DNA of 64,000 bases, taken from Actinopolymorpha sp. NPDC004070 (lineage in GTDB: Bacteria; Actinomycetota; Actinomycetes; Propionibacteriales; Actinopolymorphaceae). The DNA lies in the NCBI RefSeq assembly GCF_040610475.1, contig NZ_JBEXMJ010000006.1:62001-126000 (forward strand), given 5' to 3'. The notes under the pieces were generated by a model. That model was not told the DNA's origin and did no database searches. It saw only the letters and a program-made list of their open reading frames with translations. Of the stretch, positions 4,720 through 60,698 are shown piece after piece. A program made the translations under genes and the position numbers. Each line of letters opens with the position of its first letter. Positions within the stretch are counted from its first letter, which is position 1.

Positions 4720-4966
4720 CCGCCCACACTAATGCTCCCGGCCGGCGGTGCGAACGCGTCGGCCGGCGTGTGGATGACCGGGGCGCGCCTGGTGTCGACG
4801 TTGTCGGTCGACGTTTTCGGTCGGTGCCCGAGGATGCCCGGCAGCCCGGCCACCGTCTCCTCGGGCAGCCCGGTGACGGTCTCCTCCGCCAGGTCGCGCC
4901 ACAGCCGCATGACCCAGCGAGGGCACACACGGCCGTCGGTGGTCGGCCAGGGATGTCCGTTCACCC

Positions 4967-5353
4967 CGGGGGCTGTACTCCGCCGCGCAGGTCGCCGCCT
5001 CGCGCAAGGTCACCGACGCGGTGCACGCGGCCGGCGGAAGAATCTTCGCCCAGCTTCTGCACACCGGCCGGATCGGCCACCCCGCTCTGCTTCCCGGCGG
5101 GCTCGAGCCCGCGCCGTCGGCCGTCGCCGCGCGAGGGCAGGTGTTCACCCCCGACGGCATGCGCGGCTTCGTCACTCCGCGGGAGTTGACCGAGGCGGAC
5201 ATCCGGCAGACCGTGGCCGGCCGCGTGGCCGCCGCCCGCAACGCCGTCGACGCCGGCTTCGACGGGGTGGAACTGCACGGCGCCAACGGCTACCTGATCC
5301 ACGCTGCCGCGGGACCGGCCCGGCTGACCGCGCCCCGGCACGGCACACCGTGA
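4967..5353 (+). pseudogene. Remnant of an old-yellow-enzyme (NADH:flavin oxidoreductase) gene
   Basis: Only an internal block of about 115 residues of this FMN-dependent enzyme survives. The frame reads RGLYSAAQVAASRKVTDAVH, then GGRIFAQLLHTGRIGHP, VTPRELTEADI and finally FDGVELHGANGYLIH. These match the part of the TIM barrel running to the substrate-site HGANGYLI motif. The N-terminal FMN-binding strands are missing. After GYLIH the frame leaves the family (which normally continues QFL) and stops at 5351-5353, so about 200 C-terminal residues are lost. No plausible start or ribosome site precedes it. The rest of 4720-5545 holds no gene I can support. Confidence 0.8.
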
Positions 5354-5545
5354 CAGCGCGCGCAACCGAGAAAACGGCTTGAAAACGTGCGAACCAGCAG
5401 AACCTCAGCAGATCGGACAAAAGCCACCGGTCAGGCCGGATTGCCGTACGACGTCGTGGCCGTGTCCCCCGCCGGCCCGGCCGACGCTCACCATGTGTCA
5501 CCACGAGCGTGGGTGTCGGGACACGGTGCGTGGGACACTTCGCAG

Positions 5546-23460: not shown

Positions 23461-24855
23461 ATGACCGACCATCTCGCCCAGCCCGCCCCCGCGGGCGACG
23501 CCGGGTCCGAGGACATCTTCGGCCACCTTCACCCCTCGACCGGTGCGGGCCGGGCGGACGGGCCCGGCAACTTCGACGCCCACCACCCGCCGGACAAGGA
23601 CCTCCTCGACGACTGCGTGCACTGCGGGTTCTGCCTGCCCACCTGCCCCACGTACGCCCTGTGGGGTGAGGAGATGGACTCCCCGCGCGGGCGGATCTAC
23701 CTCATGGACCTCGTACGCGAGGGCTCGGCGTCCTTCGACGACCAACTGGTCCGGCACTTCGACACCTGCCTGGGCTGCATGGCCTGCGTGACGGCCTGCC
23801 CGTCTGGTGTGCAGTACGACAAGCTGCTGGAGTCGATGCGGCCGCAGATCGAGCGGCACCACGAGCGCAGCTGGTCCGACCGTACGTTCCGCGAGCTGGT
23901 CTTCGCGCTCTTCCCGCACCCGCGCAGGCTCCGCCTCGCGGCGATCGGCGGGCTGGCGTACCAGCGCAGCGGCCTGCCTCGGCTGCTGCGCCGTGGGCGA
24001 TTCCTCGACCGGCTGCCGGCCCGGCTCCGCGCGCTGGAGTCGCTGCTCCCGCCAATCCGGGCCCGCGACCTGGTGGCCGACCCGCCCGAGCGGGTGGCCG
24101 CGGTCGGCACACCCCGCCGCCGGGTGGCGGTGCTCACCGGCTGCGTGCAGCGGGTCTTCTTCTCCGGTGTCAACGCGGCGACGGTGCGCACCCTGGCGGC
24201 CGAGGGGTGCGAGGTGCTGATCCCCCCCGACCAGGGCTGCTGCGGAGCGCTCAGCATGCACACCGGACGCGAGCCCGAGGCGCTGACCAGGGCGCGCGAC
24301 ACGATCGCGACGTTCGAGCGGTACGACGTGGACACGATCGTGGTCAACGTCGCCGGCTGTGGCTCGACGATGAAGGAGTACGCCACGCTGCTGCGCGACG
24401 ACGCCGACTGGGCCGACCGGGCGGCGGCGTTCAGCGCGAAGGTGCGCGACGTCACCGAGGTGCTCGCCGAACTCGAGCCACGGGCTCCCCGTAACCCGAT
24501 CGAGGGCCGCGTCGCCTACCACGACGCCTGCCACCTGGGCCACGCCCAGGGCGTTCGGGCCGCGCCGCGGGCGATGCTGGCGACCATCCCCGGACTGGAG
24601 GTCGTCGACCTGCCCGAGGCGGAGCTGTGCTGTGGCTCGGCCGGGGTCTACAACCTGCTCGAGCCCGAGGCCGCCGCCGACCTCGGCCGGCGCAAGGTGG
24701 CCAACGTCCGCTCGGTCCAACCCGATGTGGTCGCCACCGCCAACCCCGGCTGCCTGCTGCAGATCAGGCGTCACCTCGGCGAGCAGGCGCCACCGCTGCT
24801 GCACCCGGTCGAACTCGTGGACGCCTCGATCCGCGGCGTGTCACCCCTGGGGTAG
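23461..24855 (+). CDS. glcF: Glycolate oxidase iron-sulfur subunit
   Basis: 464 residues, ATG 23461, 16 bases after glcE. Two 4Fe-4S motifs near the N terminus (CVHCGFCLPTCP and CLGCMACVTACPSGV) pass electrons from the flavin subunits to the respiratory chain. Two CCG-type domains follow, with GCCGALSMHTG and CCGSAGVYNL. The last 15 bases overlap the convergent TetR remnant. Two pieces of this gene (23690-23730 and 24277-24357) recur in inverted orientation at 25315-25433. Confidence 0.94.
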   Translation: MTDHLAQPAPAGDAGSEDIFGHLHPSTGAGRADGPGNFDAHHPPDKDLLDDCVHCGFCLPTCPTYALWGEEMDSPRGRIYLMDLVREGSASFDDQLVRHFDTCLGCMACVTACPSGVQYDKLLESMRPQIERHHERSWSDRTFRELVFALFPHPRRLRLAAIGGLAYQRSGLPRLLRRGRFLDRLPARLRALESLLPPIRARDLVADPPERVAAVGTPRRRVAVLTGCVQRVFFSGVNAATVRTLAAEGCEVLIPPDQGCCGALSMHTGREPEALTRARDTIATFERYDVDTIVVNVAGCGSTMKEYATLLRDDADWADRAAAFSAKVRDVTEVLAELEPRAPRNPIEGRVAYHDACHLGHAQGVRAAPRAMLATIPGLEVVDLPEAELCCGSAGVYNLLEPEAAADLGRRKVANVRSVQPDVVATANPGCLLQIRRHLGEQAPPLLHPVELVDASIRGVSPLG

Positions 24856-25314
24856 CCGGGCGGCGATGCCGTCCAGCATGCACTCCACGCCGAGCGCGAC
24901 GCTGTCGTCCTCGCCGGGCCCGGTCGGTGCCGACAGCCAGGCGCGCAGCAGCGGACACCGCGCGCCGTCGGCCAGGTCGGTCAGCGCCCTGATCGCGGCC
25001 ACGAAGTCGCCGGCCCCTTCCAGGCCGTATCTCACCCGCATGCGGTGCTCCTCGGCCGCCTGCAGCCCGGCGCCGACCAGGTGCCGGTCCAGCAGGGCGG
25101 CGTACGTCATCGCCTGGCCGACCGGCAGGCCCTGGCCGGTCAGCACCGCCAGGACGAACTCCGTTCGCCGCATCAGGTGCGGACCGGCCGGCGGCCTGGT
25201 GTGCACGAGTTCGGCCCACCACGGGTGCCGGACGATCATCTGCCAGGTGCGGGCGGCCAGCCCCGCGAGGTCCGCACGCCAGTCCGCGCCGCGCGCGGCG
25301 CGCCGAGCGCGGCG
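24841..25314 (-). pseudogene. Truncated TetR-family regulator (C-terminal ligand domain only)
   Basis: About 155 codons read as a TetR C-terminal helical domain: GADWRADLAGLAARTWQMI, then HPWWAELVHTRP, AAEEHRMRVRYGLEGAGDF and a final ECMLDGIAARLPQG. The N-terminal helix-turn-helix is gone. Upstream in the same frame the sequence runs into a 14-bp tandem repeat and then into inverted glcF fragments, so the break point is near 25314. An open frame to 25467 exists but its first half is not TetR. The loss of the DNA-binding domain makes a repressor function unlikely. Confidence 0.75.
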
Positions 25315-25322
25315 CGCCGAGC
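25295..25322. repeat. 14-bp tandem duplication at a rearrangement junction
   Basis: GCGGCGCGCCGAGC is present twice in exact tandem (25295-25308, 25309-25322). The second copy overlaps the start of the inverted glcF fragment at 25315, so it marks the junction between the TetR remnant and the filler DNA. Confidence 0.85.
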
Positions 25323-25355
25323 CCTCGCGCACGAGGTCCATGAGGTAGATCCGCC
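25315..25355 (-). repeat. Inverted copy of glcF 23690-23730
   Basis: The reverse complement of these 41 bases matches glcF 23690-23730, with one mismatch (G for A in the CTCGTACG stretch). It encodes RIYLMDLVREGSA in both places. It abuts the second glcF fragment with three shared bases (GGC) at the junction. Confidence 0.93.
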
Positions 25356-25433
25356 GGCGACGTTGACCACGATCGTGTCCACGTCGTACCGCTCGAACGT
25401 CGCGATCGTGTCGCGCGCCCTGGTCAGCGCCTC
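25353..25433 (-). repeat. Inverted copy of glcF 24277-24357
   Basis: The reverse complement of these 81 bases is identical to glcF 24277-24357, reading EALTRARDTIATFERYDVD in both. In glcF this segment lies about 550 bases downstream of the other copied piece; here the order of the two is reversed. The right edge meets the truncated hydrolase-like gene directly. Confidence 0.95.
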
Positions 25434-26268
25434 CATCTCCGGACCGCCCGGTCGCTGATGCGCGCACACGGCTACGAGAAGCCGGTGGTGGTCGGTGAGT
25501 ACCGCGGCCCGACGCCGTTCTGGTTTCCCGGGGCGATGGCGGTGATCAGCGAGACGATGATGTCCGCGTTCGCCGGCGCCACCGAGGCCCCGGCCGACCT
25601 CAGCACGGACGAGCTACGCGCCCAGGCCGGCCAGGAGACGCCGGAGCGCAGGGCGATGCGGGCGCTGTACGCCCGGCCGGACGTGCCGCCGGAGCTGGCG
25701 ATGTTCCTGGCGGACTGCCCACCTGGCCTGGAGGCCCGGCGACGCCGGATGGGCTGCCGGGACCTGGTGATGCGCAACCTGCTGGCGTTGTCGGCCGGGG
25801 TGCGGCGCACGATCTGCTGGGACCTCGCGCCGGAGGTCCCCGGTCGCGTCGACCACCTCACCATGGCCCACCTGATGTACGCGACGCTCCCGTTGCTGGA
25901 CTACGAGGGTACGAAGCTGAACGTGCGTCACCCGGAGGCGGAGACGTTCGCCCTGCTGGCCAAGCTGCTCGCCGGGGCCCTGACCGTCACCCGCCGCCCG
26001 CTGCCGGACCGGCCGGAGGTGGCGGCGTTCGACGTCGACCGCGGGGCGGGCGGCCCGCTGCTGGCCGTGTGGGACGAGCAGCGCGACCTGTTCGACGGTG
26101 AGGAGCTTCCCGCCCAACTGGTCGAGGTGCCCTGGCCATCGCTCGAGGGGAGCGCTGGCACACAGGTGGAGGCGGTGGACGCCTTCGGGGCCGCCGTCGC
26201 GGTAGAGAGGAGGCCGGGCTCGGTGGTGGTTCCGGTGTCCGTCACGCCGGTGCTCGTCTACCCGGCCT
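25434..26268 (+). pseudogene. 5'-truncated glycoside-hydrolase-like gene
   Basis: The frame begins directly at the junction (LRTARSLMRAHGYEKPVVVG, EYRGPTPFWFPG) and has no start signal; the ATG at 25458 looks internal. A VVVGEYRGP block resembles the end-of-barrel strand of clan-A glycosidases. Later blocks are CWDLAPEVPGRVDHL, LLAVWDEQRDLFDGE and a final VVVPVSVTPVLV beta-strand like a C-terminal sandwich domain. Similarity seems to end near 26268, yet the frame stays open to 26630, through a terminator hairpin, so the stop may be lost or a frameshift present. The hydrolase assignment is tentative; truncation is clearer than function. Confidence 0.6.
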
Positions 26269-26354
26269 CGCCCGTCTCCCCCGTCGTCGCCGGGTCGTCC
26301 CGACGTCGCCGCGACCCGGGCACGCGGACATCGGAGACGGAGCTGGAACCCCGG

Positions 26355-26557
26355 ACAACGAACGAGGGCGTGACCACTCGGAAGTGGTCACGCCCCACGT
26401 GGTGCGGCCGCGTTGCTCGGCTGCCGAGGTCGCCCAGTCGGCCCGCCGCGCGGCCACGTCTTTTGGTGAGTAGAGCCTTGGTGAGCAGAGCTTTCCGACC
26501 TCTGACCGGGAAGGTCAGCTTCGAGGACGAGATGTTTGTGTCTCGCAGCCCTGCGTC
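26355..26557 (-). ncRNA. Candidate small RNA or leader transcript with its own promoter and terminator
   Basis: On the minus strand a TTGACC box (26594-26589) is followed 17-19 bases later by GGTAATCT (26571-26564), a fair sigma-70 promoter that would start near 26557. About 165 bases downstream lies the 12-bp hairpin 26367-26394, followed on this strand by TCGTTCGTTG. The 26461-26630 part is about 54% GC against about 70% around it. It contains a near-exact repeat GCTCTGCTCACCAA / GCTCTACTCACCAA and a CTGACC/GGTCAG stem. No RNA family is recognised, and a short peptide cannot be excluded. Confidence 0.35.
26367..26394. terminator. Hairpin terminator in the rearranged region
   Basis: A 12-bp perfect stem, GGCGTGACCACT (26367-26378) with AGTGGTCACGCC (26383-26394) and loop CGGA. 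It probably ended the original hydrolase transcript on the plus strand and can also end a minus-strand transcript. Confidence 0.85.
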
Positions 26558-26645
26558 ACCGGAAGATTACCCATACGCATGGCAGTCAGGTCAACCCCAA
26601 CCAATCGGTAATATCGCAAACCTCTGGTGACGGCCCTCGCGGACC

Positions 26646-27140
26646 TCACACGACCTGGTGAAGCCACCGCACCGCGGCACCTTCACCTGCGTGCCGGAAG
26701 GGCTCCAGCTCGTCGTCCCACTGCTTGCCCAGCACTCGCTCCAGCTCGTGCTCGAGCGGGGACTCCCCCAGCCGGGCCTTCACCATCGCCGCCTTCAGCC
26801 GGTCCTCGGGGACGAGGATGTCGCCGTGCGGTCCGGTGACGGCGTGGAAGAGCCCCAGCGTCGGGGTGTAGGAGTAACGAGCACCCTCACAGCCCGGGCT
26901 GGGCTCCTCGGTCACCTCGTAGCGCAGCTGGCGCCATCCGCGAAGTGCGGACGCGATCGCCGCGGCGGTGCCGGGTTTGGCCTGCCAGGACAGCTCGGTT
27001 CGCTGGGCGCCGACGCAGGCAGGCTGCGGCGTCCAGTCGAAGGTCACGCGCACGCCAACCACGCCGGCGACTGCCCACTCCACGTGGGGACATACCGCCG
27101 ACGGCGCCGAATGGACGTACAGCACGCCTCGTGTCGTCAC
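26646..27140 (-). CDS. DUF3145 family protein
   Basis: 164 residues from GTG 27140, with GGAGAGG nine bases upstream; this gives the family N terminus TTRGVLYVHSAPSAVCPHVEW. Further blocks are VTFDWTPQPA, YEVTEEPSPGCEGARYSY and the C-terminal WDDELEPFRHAGEGAAVRWL. The family is widely conserved in actinobacteria and has no assigned function. No membrane segment or signal peptide is visible. The longer open frame to 27191 adds residues outside the family. Confidence 0.9.
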   Translation of the reverse strand: MTTRGVLYVHSAPSAVCPHVEWAVAGVVGVRVTFDWTPQPACVGAQRTELSWQAKPGTAAAIASALRGWRQLRYEVTEEPSPGCEGARYSYTPTLGLFHAVTGPHGDILVPEDRLKAAMVKARLGESPLEHELERVLGKQWDDELEPFRHAGEGAAVRWLHQVV

Positions 27141-58725: not shown

Positions 58726-58788
58726 AGGGACGAATGTAGCCGCGGTCCCTTCGACCCCCGTCCGGTCGGGGTCCGGTCACGGTTCGGT

Positions 58789-59577
58789 TCAGCTCATGAA
58801 CATCCCGCTGGTGACGTTGACGAACGTGCCCGTGATCGCCCCGGCCAGGTCCGAGGCCAGGAACGCCGCCGTACCGGCCACCTCGGCCAGCCGCGGGGAG
58901 CGCCGGGTCATCCGCATCTGGTGCAGTTGCGCCAGCAGGCCGGCGAACGCCTCCTCGTCCAGCTGCATGCCGGGGTTAACGGCGTTCAGCTTCTCCCGGC
59001 TGAACGTCTCCGGCAGCCCGGCCGTCCAGATGCCGACCACCCGCACACCCTGCGGCCCGATCTCCGCGGCCAGGTTGCGGACGAAGGTGTCGGTGGCCGC
59101 GTCGGCCGGACCGGTGCTGCCCATCATCGGGCTGCCGTGCGACGAGCCGCTGTTCAGCGCGAGGATCGTACCGGACCCCTGGGTGACCATGTGCCTGGCG
59201 GCCGCGCGGGCGGTGACGAAGTTCGTTGTCAAGCGTGTGTTGACAGCGCGCAGAAGGTCGGCCGTCGTCATGTCGACCAGCGGGATTCCCTGTACGTCGC
59301 CTCCCGGTACGAGGTTGAAGGACACGTCCACGCTGCCGGCCCGGGCGACCACGGCCCGGACGTGCTCGTCGACCGCGCCCTCGTCCAGCGCGTCGACGAC
59401 GGCGACGTCGGCCTGACCTCCCGCGGCGGAGATCTCCTTGGCCACCCGCTCCAGGCTGTCGCGGGTACGTCCTGCGAGGAAGACCCGGGCGCCCTCGCGG
59501 GCGAACGTGGTGGCCGTCGCCGCGCCGATCGACCCGCCGGCGCCGTAGATGATCGCGGTCTTGTTCTCCAGCAGCAT
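58789..59577 (-). CDS. Atypical short-chain dehydrogenase without the Tyr/Lys pair
   Basis: 262 residues from ATG 59577, with AAGG upstream. The cofactor region is present (IIYGAGGSIGAATATTFA, FLAGRTRDSLE) and the C-terminal ITGTFVNVTSGMFM is SDR-like. But where YxxxK should follow the Ser (LALNSGSSHGSPMMG), the sequence reads GSTGPADAAT, with no Tyr or Lys. It therefore probably lacks normal dehydrogenase chemistry; it could bind a nucleotide or be a different enzyme. It is divergent from the LAL remnant. Confidence 0.8.
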   Translation of the reverse strand: MLLENKTAIIYGAGGSIGAATATTFAREGARVFLAGRTRDSLERVAKEISAAGGQADVAVVDALDEGAVDEHVRAVVARAGSVDVSFNLVPGGDVQGIPLVDMTTADLLRAVNTRLTTNFVTARAAARHMVTQGSGTILALNSGSSHGSPMMGSTGPADAATDTFVRNLAAEIGPQGVRVVGIWTAGLPETFSREKLNAVNPGMQLDEEAFAGLLAQLHQMRMTRRSPRLAEVAGTAAFLASDLAGAITGTFVNVTSGMFMS

Positions 59578-59684
59578 GTGCCTTGCTCCGATTCGTACGT
59601 GAGGTTCGCGGTGTCTCGCCGGGCATTCGCCGACTGACACCGACACTAGGGACGTACGCGCACCACCGAATCCGTACCGGCATC

Positions 59685-59716
59685 AGTACTTCCGTACGCC
59701 AGTACTTCCGTACGCC
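59685..59716. repeat. Tandem 16-bp repeat upstream of the atypical SDR
   Basis: AGTACTTCCGTACGCC is present twice in exact tandem (59685-59700 and 59701-59716), followed by GTACT. Each unit contains the palindromes AGTACT and GTAC. The pair lies 108 bases before the SDR start and at the edge of the LAL remnant. Spacing of 16 bases is one and a half helical turns. It may be an operator or simply a slippage product. Confidence 0.7.
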
Positions 59717-59749
59717 GTACTCCTGTTCGCCCGCCCACCGGTACTCGCG

Positions 59750-60671
59750 CGAGCCCGGTCGGCCGCCGCCGAGGCCGGTCCCCGTGCCCTGGTCGAGGTG
59801 GCCTCCCGCGCCTTCGTCCTCGGCCGGGACGAGGAGGTCGACATCGCGGCCGGCCTGGTCGCCGACGCCCGCGGCCGGGGGATGCTGTCGGCGCTGCCAG
59901 CCGGACTCGGCTACGCCACCTTGACCCACGCCCTGCTCGGCCGGCACCGGGACGCGCTGGTGAGCGGGGACGAGGGCATGCGAATCGCCCGCGACACCGA
60001 CCAGCCGCTCTGGGAGAGCTACACCGCGGGCGCCCTGGCCCACCTCGCCGCCGTCAAGGGCGACGAGGCGCCGTGCCGGGAGTACGCCGAGGCTGCCGGC
60101 GTCGGCCGCTCCGCGCCGAACGGCTCGCTGGCCGGGCTCGCGACGGCGCACGCGGCCCTGGCCCTGCTCGATCTCGGGTACGGCCGTGTGCAGGCCGCGT
60201 TCGACCGGCTGGTCACCCTGGTGGGCGTTCGACCGCGCGCGGACCGAGCTGTCGTTCGGTGAGTGGCTGCGGCGAGGGCGGCGCCGAAGCGACGCGCGCG
60301 GGCGGCTGGCGAGCGCCCTGCGGACGTTCGAGGAGATCGGCGCACGGCCTTGGGCCGAGCGGGCGCGAGCCGAACTCGGCGCCGCCGGAGACTCCGCGGC
60401 CGCCGCATCTGTCGCCTCCTCCGCACCCGCCGGGGACTCCGGGCCCGCCCCGCACGCCGGACCCCGCGGCGCGGCCGGTGACGCCGGTGCACGGCTCACG
60501 CCGCAGGAGCTGCAGATCACCGAGCTCGCCGCCGGCGGGCTGTCCAACCGGGACATCGCCGCCCGCCTCTACCTCAGCCCGCGGACCGTGGCGTACCACC
60601 TCTACAAGGCGTACCCGAAGCTCGGCATCAGCTCCCGCGGTGAACTCGCCGCCCTGCGCGCCGGCGCCTAG
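59750..60671 (+). pseudogene. Decayed LuxR-family (LAL-type) regulator
   Basis: The left part reads in one frame as the helical TPR-like region of a large LuxR-type regulator (ALVEVASRAFVLGRDEEVDI, LGYATLTHALLGRHRDALV, HAALALLDLGYGRVQAAFDR). At about 60224-60230 the frame shifts and a stretch of roughly 80 residues seems deleted. The right part resumes as FDRARTELSFGEWLRRGRRR, then LTPQELQITELAAGGLSNRD and RTVAYHLYKAYPKLGISSR, a complete LuxR helix-turn-helix. The N-terminal ATPase is absent. The intact HTH could in principle still be made from a start near 60186. Confidence 0.75.
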
Positions 60672-60698
60672 GGCCGCTCCCTCGTCTGCCAACTTTGG

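What the first reader, a model, noticed from the sequence alone, without database searches (positions are those of the whole stretch)
24841..26268. Two genes truncated by a rearrangement filled with inverted pieces of glcF
Two inverted segments copied from glcF (81 bp identical to 24277-24357, and 41 bp with one mismatch to 23690-23730) are joined in reversed order by a 3-base microhomology (GGC). They lie between a TetR gene that has lost its DNA-binding domain and a hydrolase-like gene that has lost its 5' end. A 14-bp tandem duplication sits at the left junction. This is the pattern expected of templated filler DNA from replication template switching or error-prone end joining; actinobacteria have Ku/LigD end joining. 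The near identity suggests a recent event, and glcF itself is intact.
Basis: partly seen in the sequence, partly recalled or inferred. Interest (0 to 1): 0.72.

Follow-up and report, generated by a model that had tools for sequence, protein, structure and literature searches.

The report
Repair scar with copied gene pieces
In one species of the soil bacterium Actinopolymorpha, about a thousand bases between two neighbouring genes were lost and the gap was patched with two short backward copies of a nearby gene, leaving both genes broken; it is a clear natural example of a kind of repair error already seen in laboratory Streptomyces.

Summary
Window 25315-25355 is an inverted copy (40/41) and 25353-25433 an inverted copy (81/81) of two parts of the adjacent glcF; they share GCC, and a 14-bp tandem duplication lies at the left edge. 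Three sister Actinopolymorpha genomes keep the ancestral layout: an intact TetR gene divergent from an intact glycosidase-like gene. The window lost the 944-1,052 bp between them (TetR DNA-binding domain, shared upstream region, about 218 of 495 enzyme residues) and gained about 130 bp of filler. It is unlikely to be an artefact: at its one mismatch the filler carries the base of four relatives' glcF while this genome's glcF has changed; at another site it carries a base unique to this genome. So it was copied here, late on this branch, and glcF mutated afterwards. The genome has two Ku and four LigD-type Prim-Pol matches. Hoff et al. 2018 found 42- and 83-bp local insertions in break scars of Streptomyces, so the kind is known. 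Inverted pieces from one arm suggest fold-back copying by one broken end (inferred). No other such inverted pair was found in 1.19 Mb more of this genome. A new member of a known kind.

The parts
23461..24855 (+). glcF-like gene (glycolate oxidase iron-sulfur subunit), intact; source of both filler pieces
   Evidence: open frame; PF02754 and Fer4 domains; best NCBIfam model GlcF, below its cut-off
23690..23730 (+). source of piece A
24277..24357 (+). source of piece B
24841..25303 (-). TetR-family gene remnant: C-terminal ligand-binding part, DNA-binding part and native start lost
   Evidence: PF02909 only; sister homology up to 25303 in 3 of 3; sister proteins carry TetR_N too
25295..25322 (.). 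exact 14-bp tandem duplication at the left junction; its last 8 bases are also the first 8 of piece A
25315..25355 (-). filler piece A: inverted copy of 23690-23730 (40/41)
25353..25355 (.). 3-base overlap (GCC) between pieces A and B
25353..25433 (-). filler piece B: inverted copy of 24277-24357 (81/81); 1-base overlap (C, 25433) with the right flank
25434..26268 (+). hydrolase-like gene remnant: about 218 N-terminal residues of 495 lost; frame otherwise open and running on to 26630; end given approximately
   Evidence: sister homology resumes at 25433 in 3 of 3; aligned from residue 219; protein alignment

Best explanation
A recent, lineage-specific DNA repair scar. SHOWN: an ancestral segment of about 0.95-1.05 kb joining a divergent TetR gene and a hydrolase-like gene was replaced by about 130 bp made of two inverted copies of glcF, which lies on the TetR side; the two inner junctions overlap by 3 bases and 1 base, and a short GC-rich duplication lies at the left edge; the source gene stayed intact. 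INFERRED: a double-strand break or collapsed fork lay between the two genes and the ends were trimmed; the TetR-side 3' end folded back on its own arm (or a sister copy), primed on glcF, copied about 41 bases, let go, re-primed through GCC, copied about 81 bases, and was then joined to the hydrolase side, most likely by Ku/LigD-type end joining. Fold-back on one arm would explain why both pieces are inverted and come from the same side. Both broken genes are now probably pseudogenes. The confidence given is for a real repair or replication scar with locally copied filler; for the fold-back order I would give about 0.45.
For: Exact pieces and ends. Homology with sisters stops at 25303 and resumes at 25433 in 3 of 3 sisters; 952, 944 and 1,052 bp there against 129 bp here. 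Filler has the ancestral base at 23715, shared by 4 of 4 relatives, and this genome's own base at 24289, absent from 4 of 4. Two Ku and four LigD_Prim-Pol matches over cut-off. Local insertions of 42 and 83 bp, deletions and 1-6 nt microhomologies in induced-break scars of Streptomyces ambofaciens (PMC5869714).
Against: One assembly only; no reads seen; the protein fusion was not among the 120 hits listed of 167. Overlaps of 3 bases or more arise in 8.4% of random glcF junctions, so microhomology priming is not proved. The pre-event sequence at the left junction is unknown, so its overlap (4-8 nt) is uncertain. Ku/LigD presence does not show that they acted, and the Prim-Pol model also matches proteins outside LigD (it rings in Methanocaldococcus among the controls). 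The Streptomyces text that I read does not say that the inserts were inverted.
Confidence: 0.87

Rival explanations
1. Capture, not copying: two short glcF fragments (from a degraded sister copy) were ligated between the broken ends by Ku/LigD without templated synthesis.
For: Same product in outline; small overlaps are usual in end joining; Hoff et al. describe inserted fragments (PMC5869714). Two pieces from one gene would fit one degraded molecule.
Against: Both pieces have the same inverted orientation and come from the same side, which capture would give only by chance (about 1 in 2 for the second piece to agree with the first); there is a GCC overlap. Weak evidence either way.
Confidence: 0.3
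2. Replication template switching (FoSTeS/MMBIR-like) at a stalled fork, without a two-ended break and without Ku/LigD.
For: Two successive short copies with overlaps of 3 and 1 bases and a tandem duplication at the entry side fit serial switching. GC-rich palindromic GGCGCGCC at the left edge could stall a fork.
Against: Net loss of about 1 kb and short inserts match the end-joining scars of Streptomyces as well; not separable from sequence alone.
Confidence: 0.3
3. Assembly or amplification artefact.
For: Draft genome in 35 contigs with assembly artefacts elsewhere: two N gaps on contig C2 flanked by exact direct repeats of about 100 bp. Inverted chimeras are known from whole-genome amplification (recalled).
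Against: No N in the window; flanks collinear with three sisters apart from indels; the filler carries the ancestral base at 23715 rather than the genome's present one, which a chimera would not.
Confidence: 0.04
4. Adaptive fusion: the 208-aa frame joining the filler to the TetR C-terminal part (24841-25467, minus) is a working new protein.
For: The frame is open through the filler. dN/dS of the TetR part in comparisons with this genome (0.24-0.35) is not above that among sisters (0.29-0.48).
Against: Open frames are common at this G+C; most of the branch predates the event, so the ratios reflect earlier constraint; native start and upstream region are gone; the fusion was not among the 120 listed of 167 hits.
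Confidence: 0.04

Closest known systems
Insertion scars after I-SceI breaks in Streptomyces ambofaciens (Hoff et al. 2018, PMC5869714; sections 5 and 8 read, other passages seen)
   Same: Actinobacterium with Ku/LigD; deletion at the join; overlaps within the 1-6 nt reported; inserts of 42 or 83 bp from a region close by in two clones, like the 41 and 81 bp here.
   Different: Here natural, two pieces in one scar, both inverted, plus a tandem duplication. The text read does not give the orientation of their inserts.
Polymerase-theta end joining of eukaryotes (templated filler; recalled)
   Same: Short local copies joined through a few bases of overlap, sometimes inverted and in several rounds.
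   Different: No polymerase theta is known to me in bacteria (recalled, not searched); pieces here are long for that pathway (recalled).
FoSTeS/MMBIR serial template switching (PMC2621351, listing and start of abstract seen; otherwise recalled)
   Same: Serial short copies from nearby templates with microhomology.
   Different: Replication origin cannot be shown from this sequence.
Quasipalindrome template switching in bacteria (recalled)
   Same: Inverted copying by a nascent strand.
   Different: Acts within existing imperfect hairpins; no separated inverted pair pre-exists in the sisters at the settings, and the templates lie 1.0 and 1.6 kb away.

Membership tests
Bacterial NHEJ scar with local insertion | Ku and LigD-type polymerase encoded | tested here: met
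   2 Ku and 4 LigD_Prim-Pol matches over cut-off; full LigD architecture not checked
Bacterial NHEJ scar with local insertion | Deletion at the join, against the ancestral state | tested here: met
   944-1,052 bp replaced, 3 of 3 sisters
Bacterial NHEJ scar with local insertion | Insert from a nearby chromosomal region | tested here: met
   glcF, spacers of 995 and 1,584 nt
Bacterial NHEJ scar with local insertion | Microhomology of 1-6 nt at joins | tested here: inconclusive
   3 and 1 nt inside; left join ambiguous; 3 or more in 8.4% of random junctions
Bacterial NHEJ scar with local insertion | Dependence on ku/ligD | not testable with these tools
   needs mutants
FoSTeS/MMBIR | Two or more serial switches with microhomology | tested here: inconclusive
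   two pieces, overlaps 3 and 1 nt; overlaps compatible with chance
FoSTeS/MMBIR | Dependence on replication | not testable with these tools
   needs experiment
Quasipalindrome template switching | Pre-existing imperfect inverted repeat at the site | tested here: not met
   0 separated inverted pairs in 3 of 3 sisters (30 bp or more, 90% or more); shorter ones not excluded
Polymerase-theta end joining | Polymerase theta present | not tested
   absence in bacteria is recalled; no search was made

The most novel reading that the evidence does not exclude
Actinobacterial end joining includes a fold-back, multi-round copying step like that of eukaryotic polymerase theta, carried out by LigD-type Prim-Pols or Pol I, and it leaves patchwork inverted filler as a mutational signature in natural genomes.
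Probability: 0.25. Interest if true: 0.6.

Novelty: new member of a known kind. Interest (0 to 1): 0.36.

Why it matters
This scar keeps its source, order and ancestral state unusually legible: the source gene is intact next door, three sister species give the ancestral layout, and two diagnostic bases order the events. It suggests that the short local insertions seen after induced breaks in Streptomyces also occur in nature, in two pieces, and that one event can disable a regulator and its neighbouring enzyme at once. The signature (inverted near-identical pieces from one arm at a sister-polarised deletion) can be searched for in other genomes to test how bacterial ends are joined.

Tried and rejected
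Misassembly or chimera: rejected on base polarity, no N in the window and collinear flanks. Another species as source: rejected, the filler carries this genome's own base at 24289. A general local-duplication habit of this genome: not supported. In 1,187,670 further bases of G000 (contig C1 whole, first 400 kb of C2) there were 0 separated inverted pairs and 14 direct pairs of 30 bp or more, 90% or more, up to 5 kb apart (one search is the same for the first 400 kb). In the window the similar scan (up to 10 kb) gave 3 rows: the two pieces and one self-overlapping palindrome; the sisters gave 0, 3 and 5 rows, all self-overlapping palindromes. Of 12 other inserted or unaligned stretches that I chose from the longer list, none had a local copy longer than 18 bp within 10 kb. 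Mobile element: no support; no megablast match of 24800-26650 in the plasmid collection (the phage collection was not searched). Selection: TetR part not raised in dN/dS (0.24-0.35 with this genome, 0.29-0.48 among sisters); hydrolase part 0.30-0.34 against 0.26-0.33; uninformative on function. A first dating used three pre-event substitutions; the codon-aware check with G002 left one certain, so its figures are used. Published parallels: text searches (one returned nothing); I saw listings and abstract starts, passages of PMC7719229, and PMC5869714 as told. Beyond the latter I saw no bacterial case of this kind in those listings; this is not proof that none is in print. The one genome-contig scan found only A. 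rutila.

Full report
WHAT IS THERE. The window lies in a draft genome of the genus Actinopolymorpha (G000, 6.37 Mb, 35 contigs; window = C6:62001-126000). The genus is inferred: one search names A. rutila DSM 18448 for the contig that is G003 (same length, 6,952,820), and named best TetR relatives are from A. cephalotaxi and A. rutila. G004 is probably A. cephalotaxi, because its TetR agrees with P0001. The species of the window itself was not identified.

25353-25433 is the reverse complement of glcF 24277-24357 (81 of 81). 25315-25355 is the reverse complement of 23690-23730 (40 of 41). They share GCC (25353-25355), and the next base beyond each piece differs from its source. One inverted block would show the pieces in the opposite order, so at least two copyings are needed. 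A 14-bp unit is doubled at 25295-25322, and its last eight bases also begin piece A.

ANCESTRAL LAYOUT. Searches of 57 genomes (the window's own and 56 others) gave five congeners, G001-G005. In G001, G003 and G004 a TetR gene (243-246 aa, leftward) and a hydrolase-like gene (495-529 aa, rightward; starts chosen by alignment) stand back to back beside glcF. By blastn, homology with the window stops at 25303 in 3 of 3 and resumes at 25433 in 3 of 3; between these points the sisters have 952, 944 and 1,052 bp, the window 129 bp. Lost are the TetR DNA-binding domain (PF00440 present in P0001 and P0003, not found here), the divergent intergenic region, and about 218 residues of the enzyme. The sister enzyme reaches no Pfam cut-off; weak matches are to glycoside hydrolases (GH53, E 0.0066, below cut-off; beta-mannanase 3vup, E 0.059). 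It has 857 relatives among the 7,997 candidates scored; of the 120 listed, those with names are mostly hypothetical proteins and a few glycoside hydrolases. An N-E-P motif, which I recall as the acid/base site of clan GH-A, lies in the deleted part, so the remnant is probably inactive.

The other two congeners differ. G002 has a separate loss at the same place: its TetR gene runs within about 140 bp into a short match to the last bases of the hydrolase gene, with a 51% identical homologue elsewhere. G005 has no hydrolase match and only a 54% identical TetR match. So the pair has been damaged at least twice in the genus, which suggests that it is dispensable. The window is otherwise collinear with the three sisters apart from indels.

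IS IT REAL, AND HOW OLD. Over the 122 source positions, two bases of this genome's glcF differ from all four relatives compared, G001-G004. At 24289 the filler has the new base: it was copied in this lineage, after that change. At 23715 (third codon position) the filler has the old base: glcF changed after the copying. A chimera or misassembly would repeat present-day glcF, so this argues strongly for a real event. With no apparent change in 119 filler sites and a neutral rate of half the glcF dS to G004 (0.256/2), a rough likelihood puts the event in the last 6% or so (95% range 1.5-34%) of the branch. The other polarity at 23715 (a back-change in the filler) is possible but needs two changes. 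At 24294 and 24297 G002 shares the window's base, so these were not used.

HOW UNUSUAL. No other separated inverted pair (30 bp or more, 90% or more) was found in the window or in 78.5 kb from each of three sisters (up to 10 kb apart), nor in 1,187,670 further bases of this genome, 19% of it (up to 5 kb apart). Of 14 direct pairs in the latter, two, of 98 and 100 bp on C2, flank runs of N and look like assembly artefacts.

HOW IT PROBABLY AROSE. Shown: deletion, two inverted local copies, intact source, small overlaps. Inferred: break, trimming, copying and joining. Both pieces are inverted and come from the TetR-side arm. If the top strand of that arm had a free 3' end and folded back on its own strand, it would copy just such inverted pieces: first 23730 down to 23690, then, after re-priming at GCC, 24357 down to 24277, before joining the hydrolase side. 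The left edge offers the longest possible priming stretch (CGCC to CGCCGAGC, 4-8 nt), but the sequence there before the event is not known. Overlaps of 3 or more arise in 8.4% of random junctions, so microhomology is compatible with the data, not proved. The genome has two Ku and four LigD Prim-Pol matches over cut-off. Ligation of captured fragments and switching at a stalled fork remain open; sequence alone does not separate them.

WHAT IS KNOWN. Hoff et al. 2018 (PMC5869714; passages, sections 5 and 8 read) cut the Streptomyces ambofaciens chromosome with I-SceI. Deletions were 191-23,591 bp, microhomology of 1-6 nt was seen in half of the scars, and three clones had an insertion: 42 or 83 bp from a region close by in two, 30 bp of a transposase gene in the third; their discussion counts five insertion events in all. 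The sizes resemble the 41 and 81 bp here, which may be coincidence. The text read does not state the orientation of those inserts. So this finding is a natural, two-piece example of a known kind of scar, with the inverted orientation as its distinctive feature.

VERDICT. Observation confirmed, interpretation supported; the break, the polymerase and the ligase are inferred. Interest is moderate: a clear case rather than a new kind.

Noticed in passing
window 26268-26630: The hydrolase remnant's frame runs past the position of the sisters' stop codon to 26630, an added sign that its end is no longer kept.
   Followed up: partly
L030 (G002:C1:6523000-6531000): Independent loss of most of the hydrolase gene and the TetR N-terminal part at the same place in another congener.
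   Followed up: partly
G000 contig C2, 141371-141665 and 155346-155638: Runs of N flanked by exact direct repeats of 100 and 98 bp: likely unresolved overlaps left by the assembler.
   Followed up: yes
L027, L028, L029 (sister TetR-hydrolase pair): The hydrolase-like protein belongs to a large family without a Pfam model above cut-off. At least ten longest-contig lengths are shared between the listed TetR hits and hydrolase hits, which suggests that the two genes travel as a pair; the contigs were not opened.
   Followed up: partly
window 4732-5365 and 58779-60686: Stretches of 634 and 1,908 bp unaligned to sister G004 (48 and 88 bp there); the second holds a reading frame that looks like a short-chain dehydrogenase (my reading), and no local template was found for either.
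   Followed up: partly
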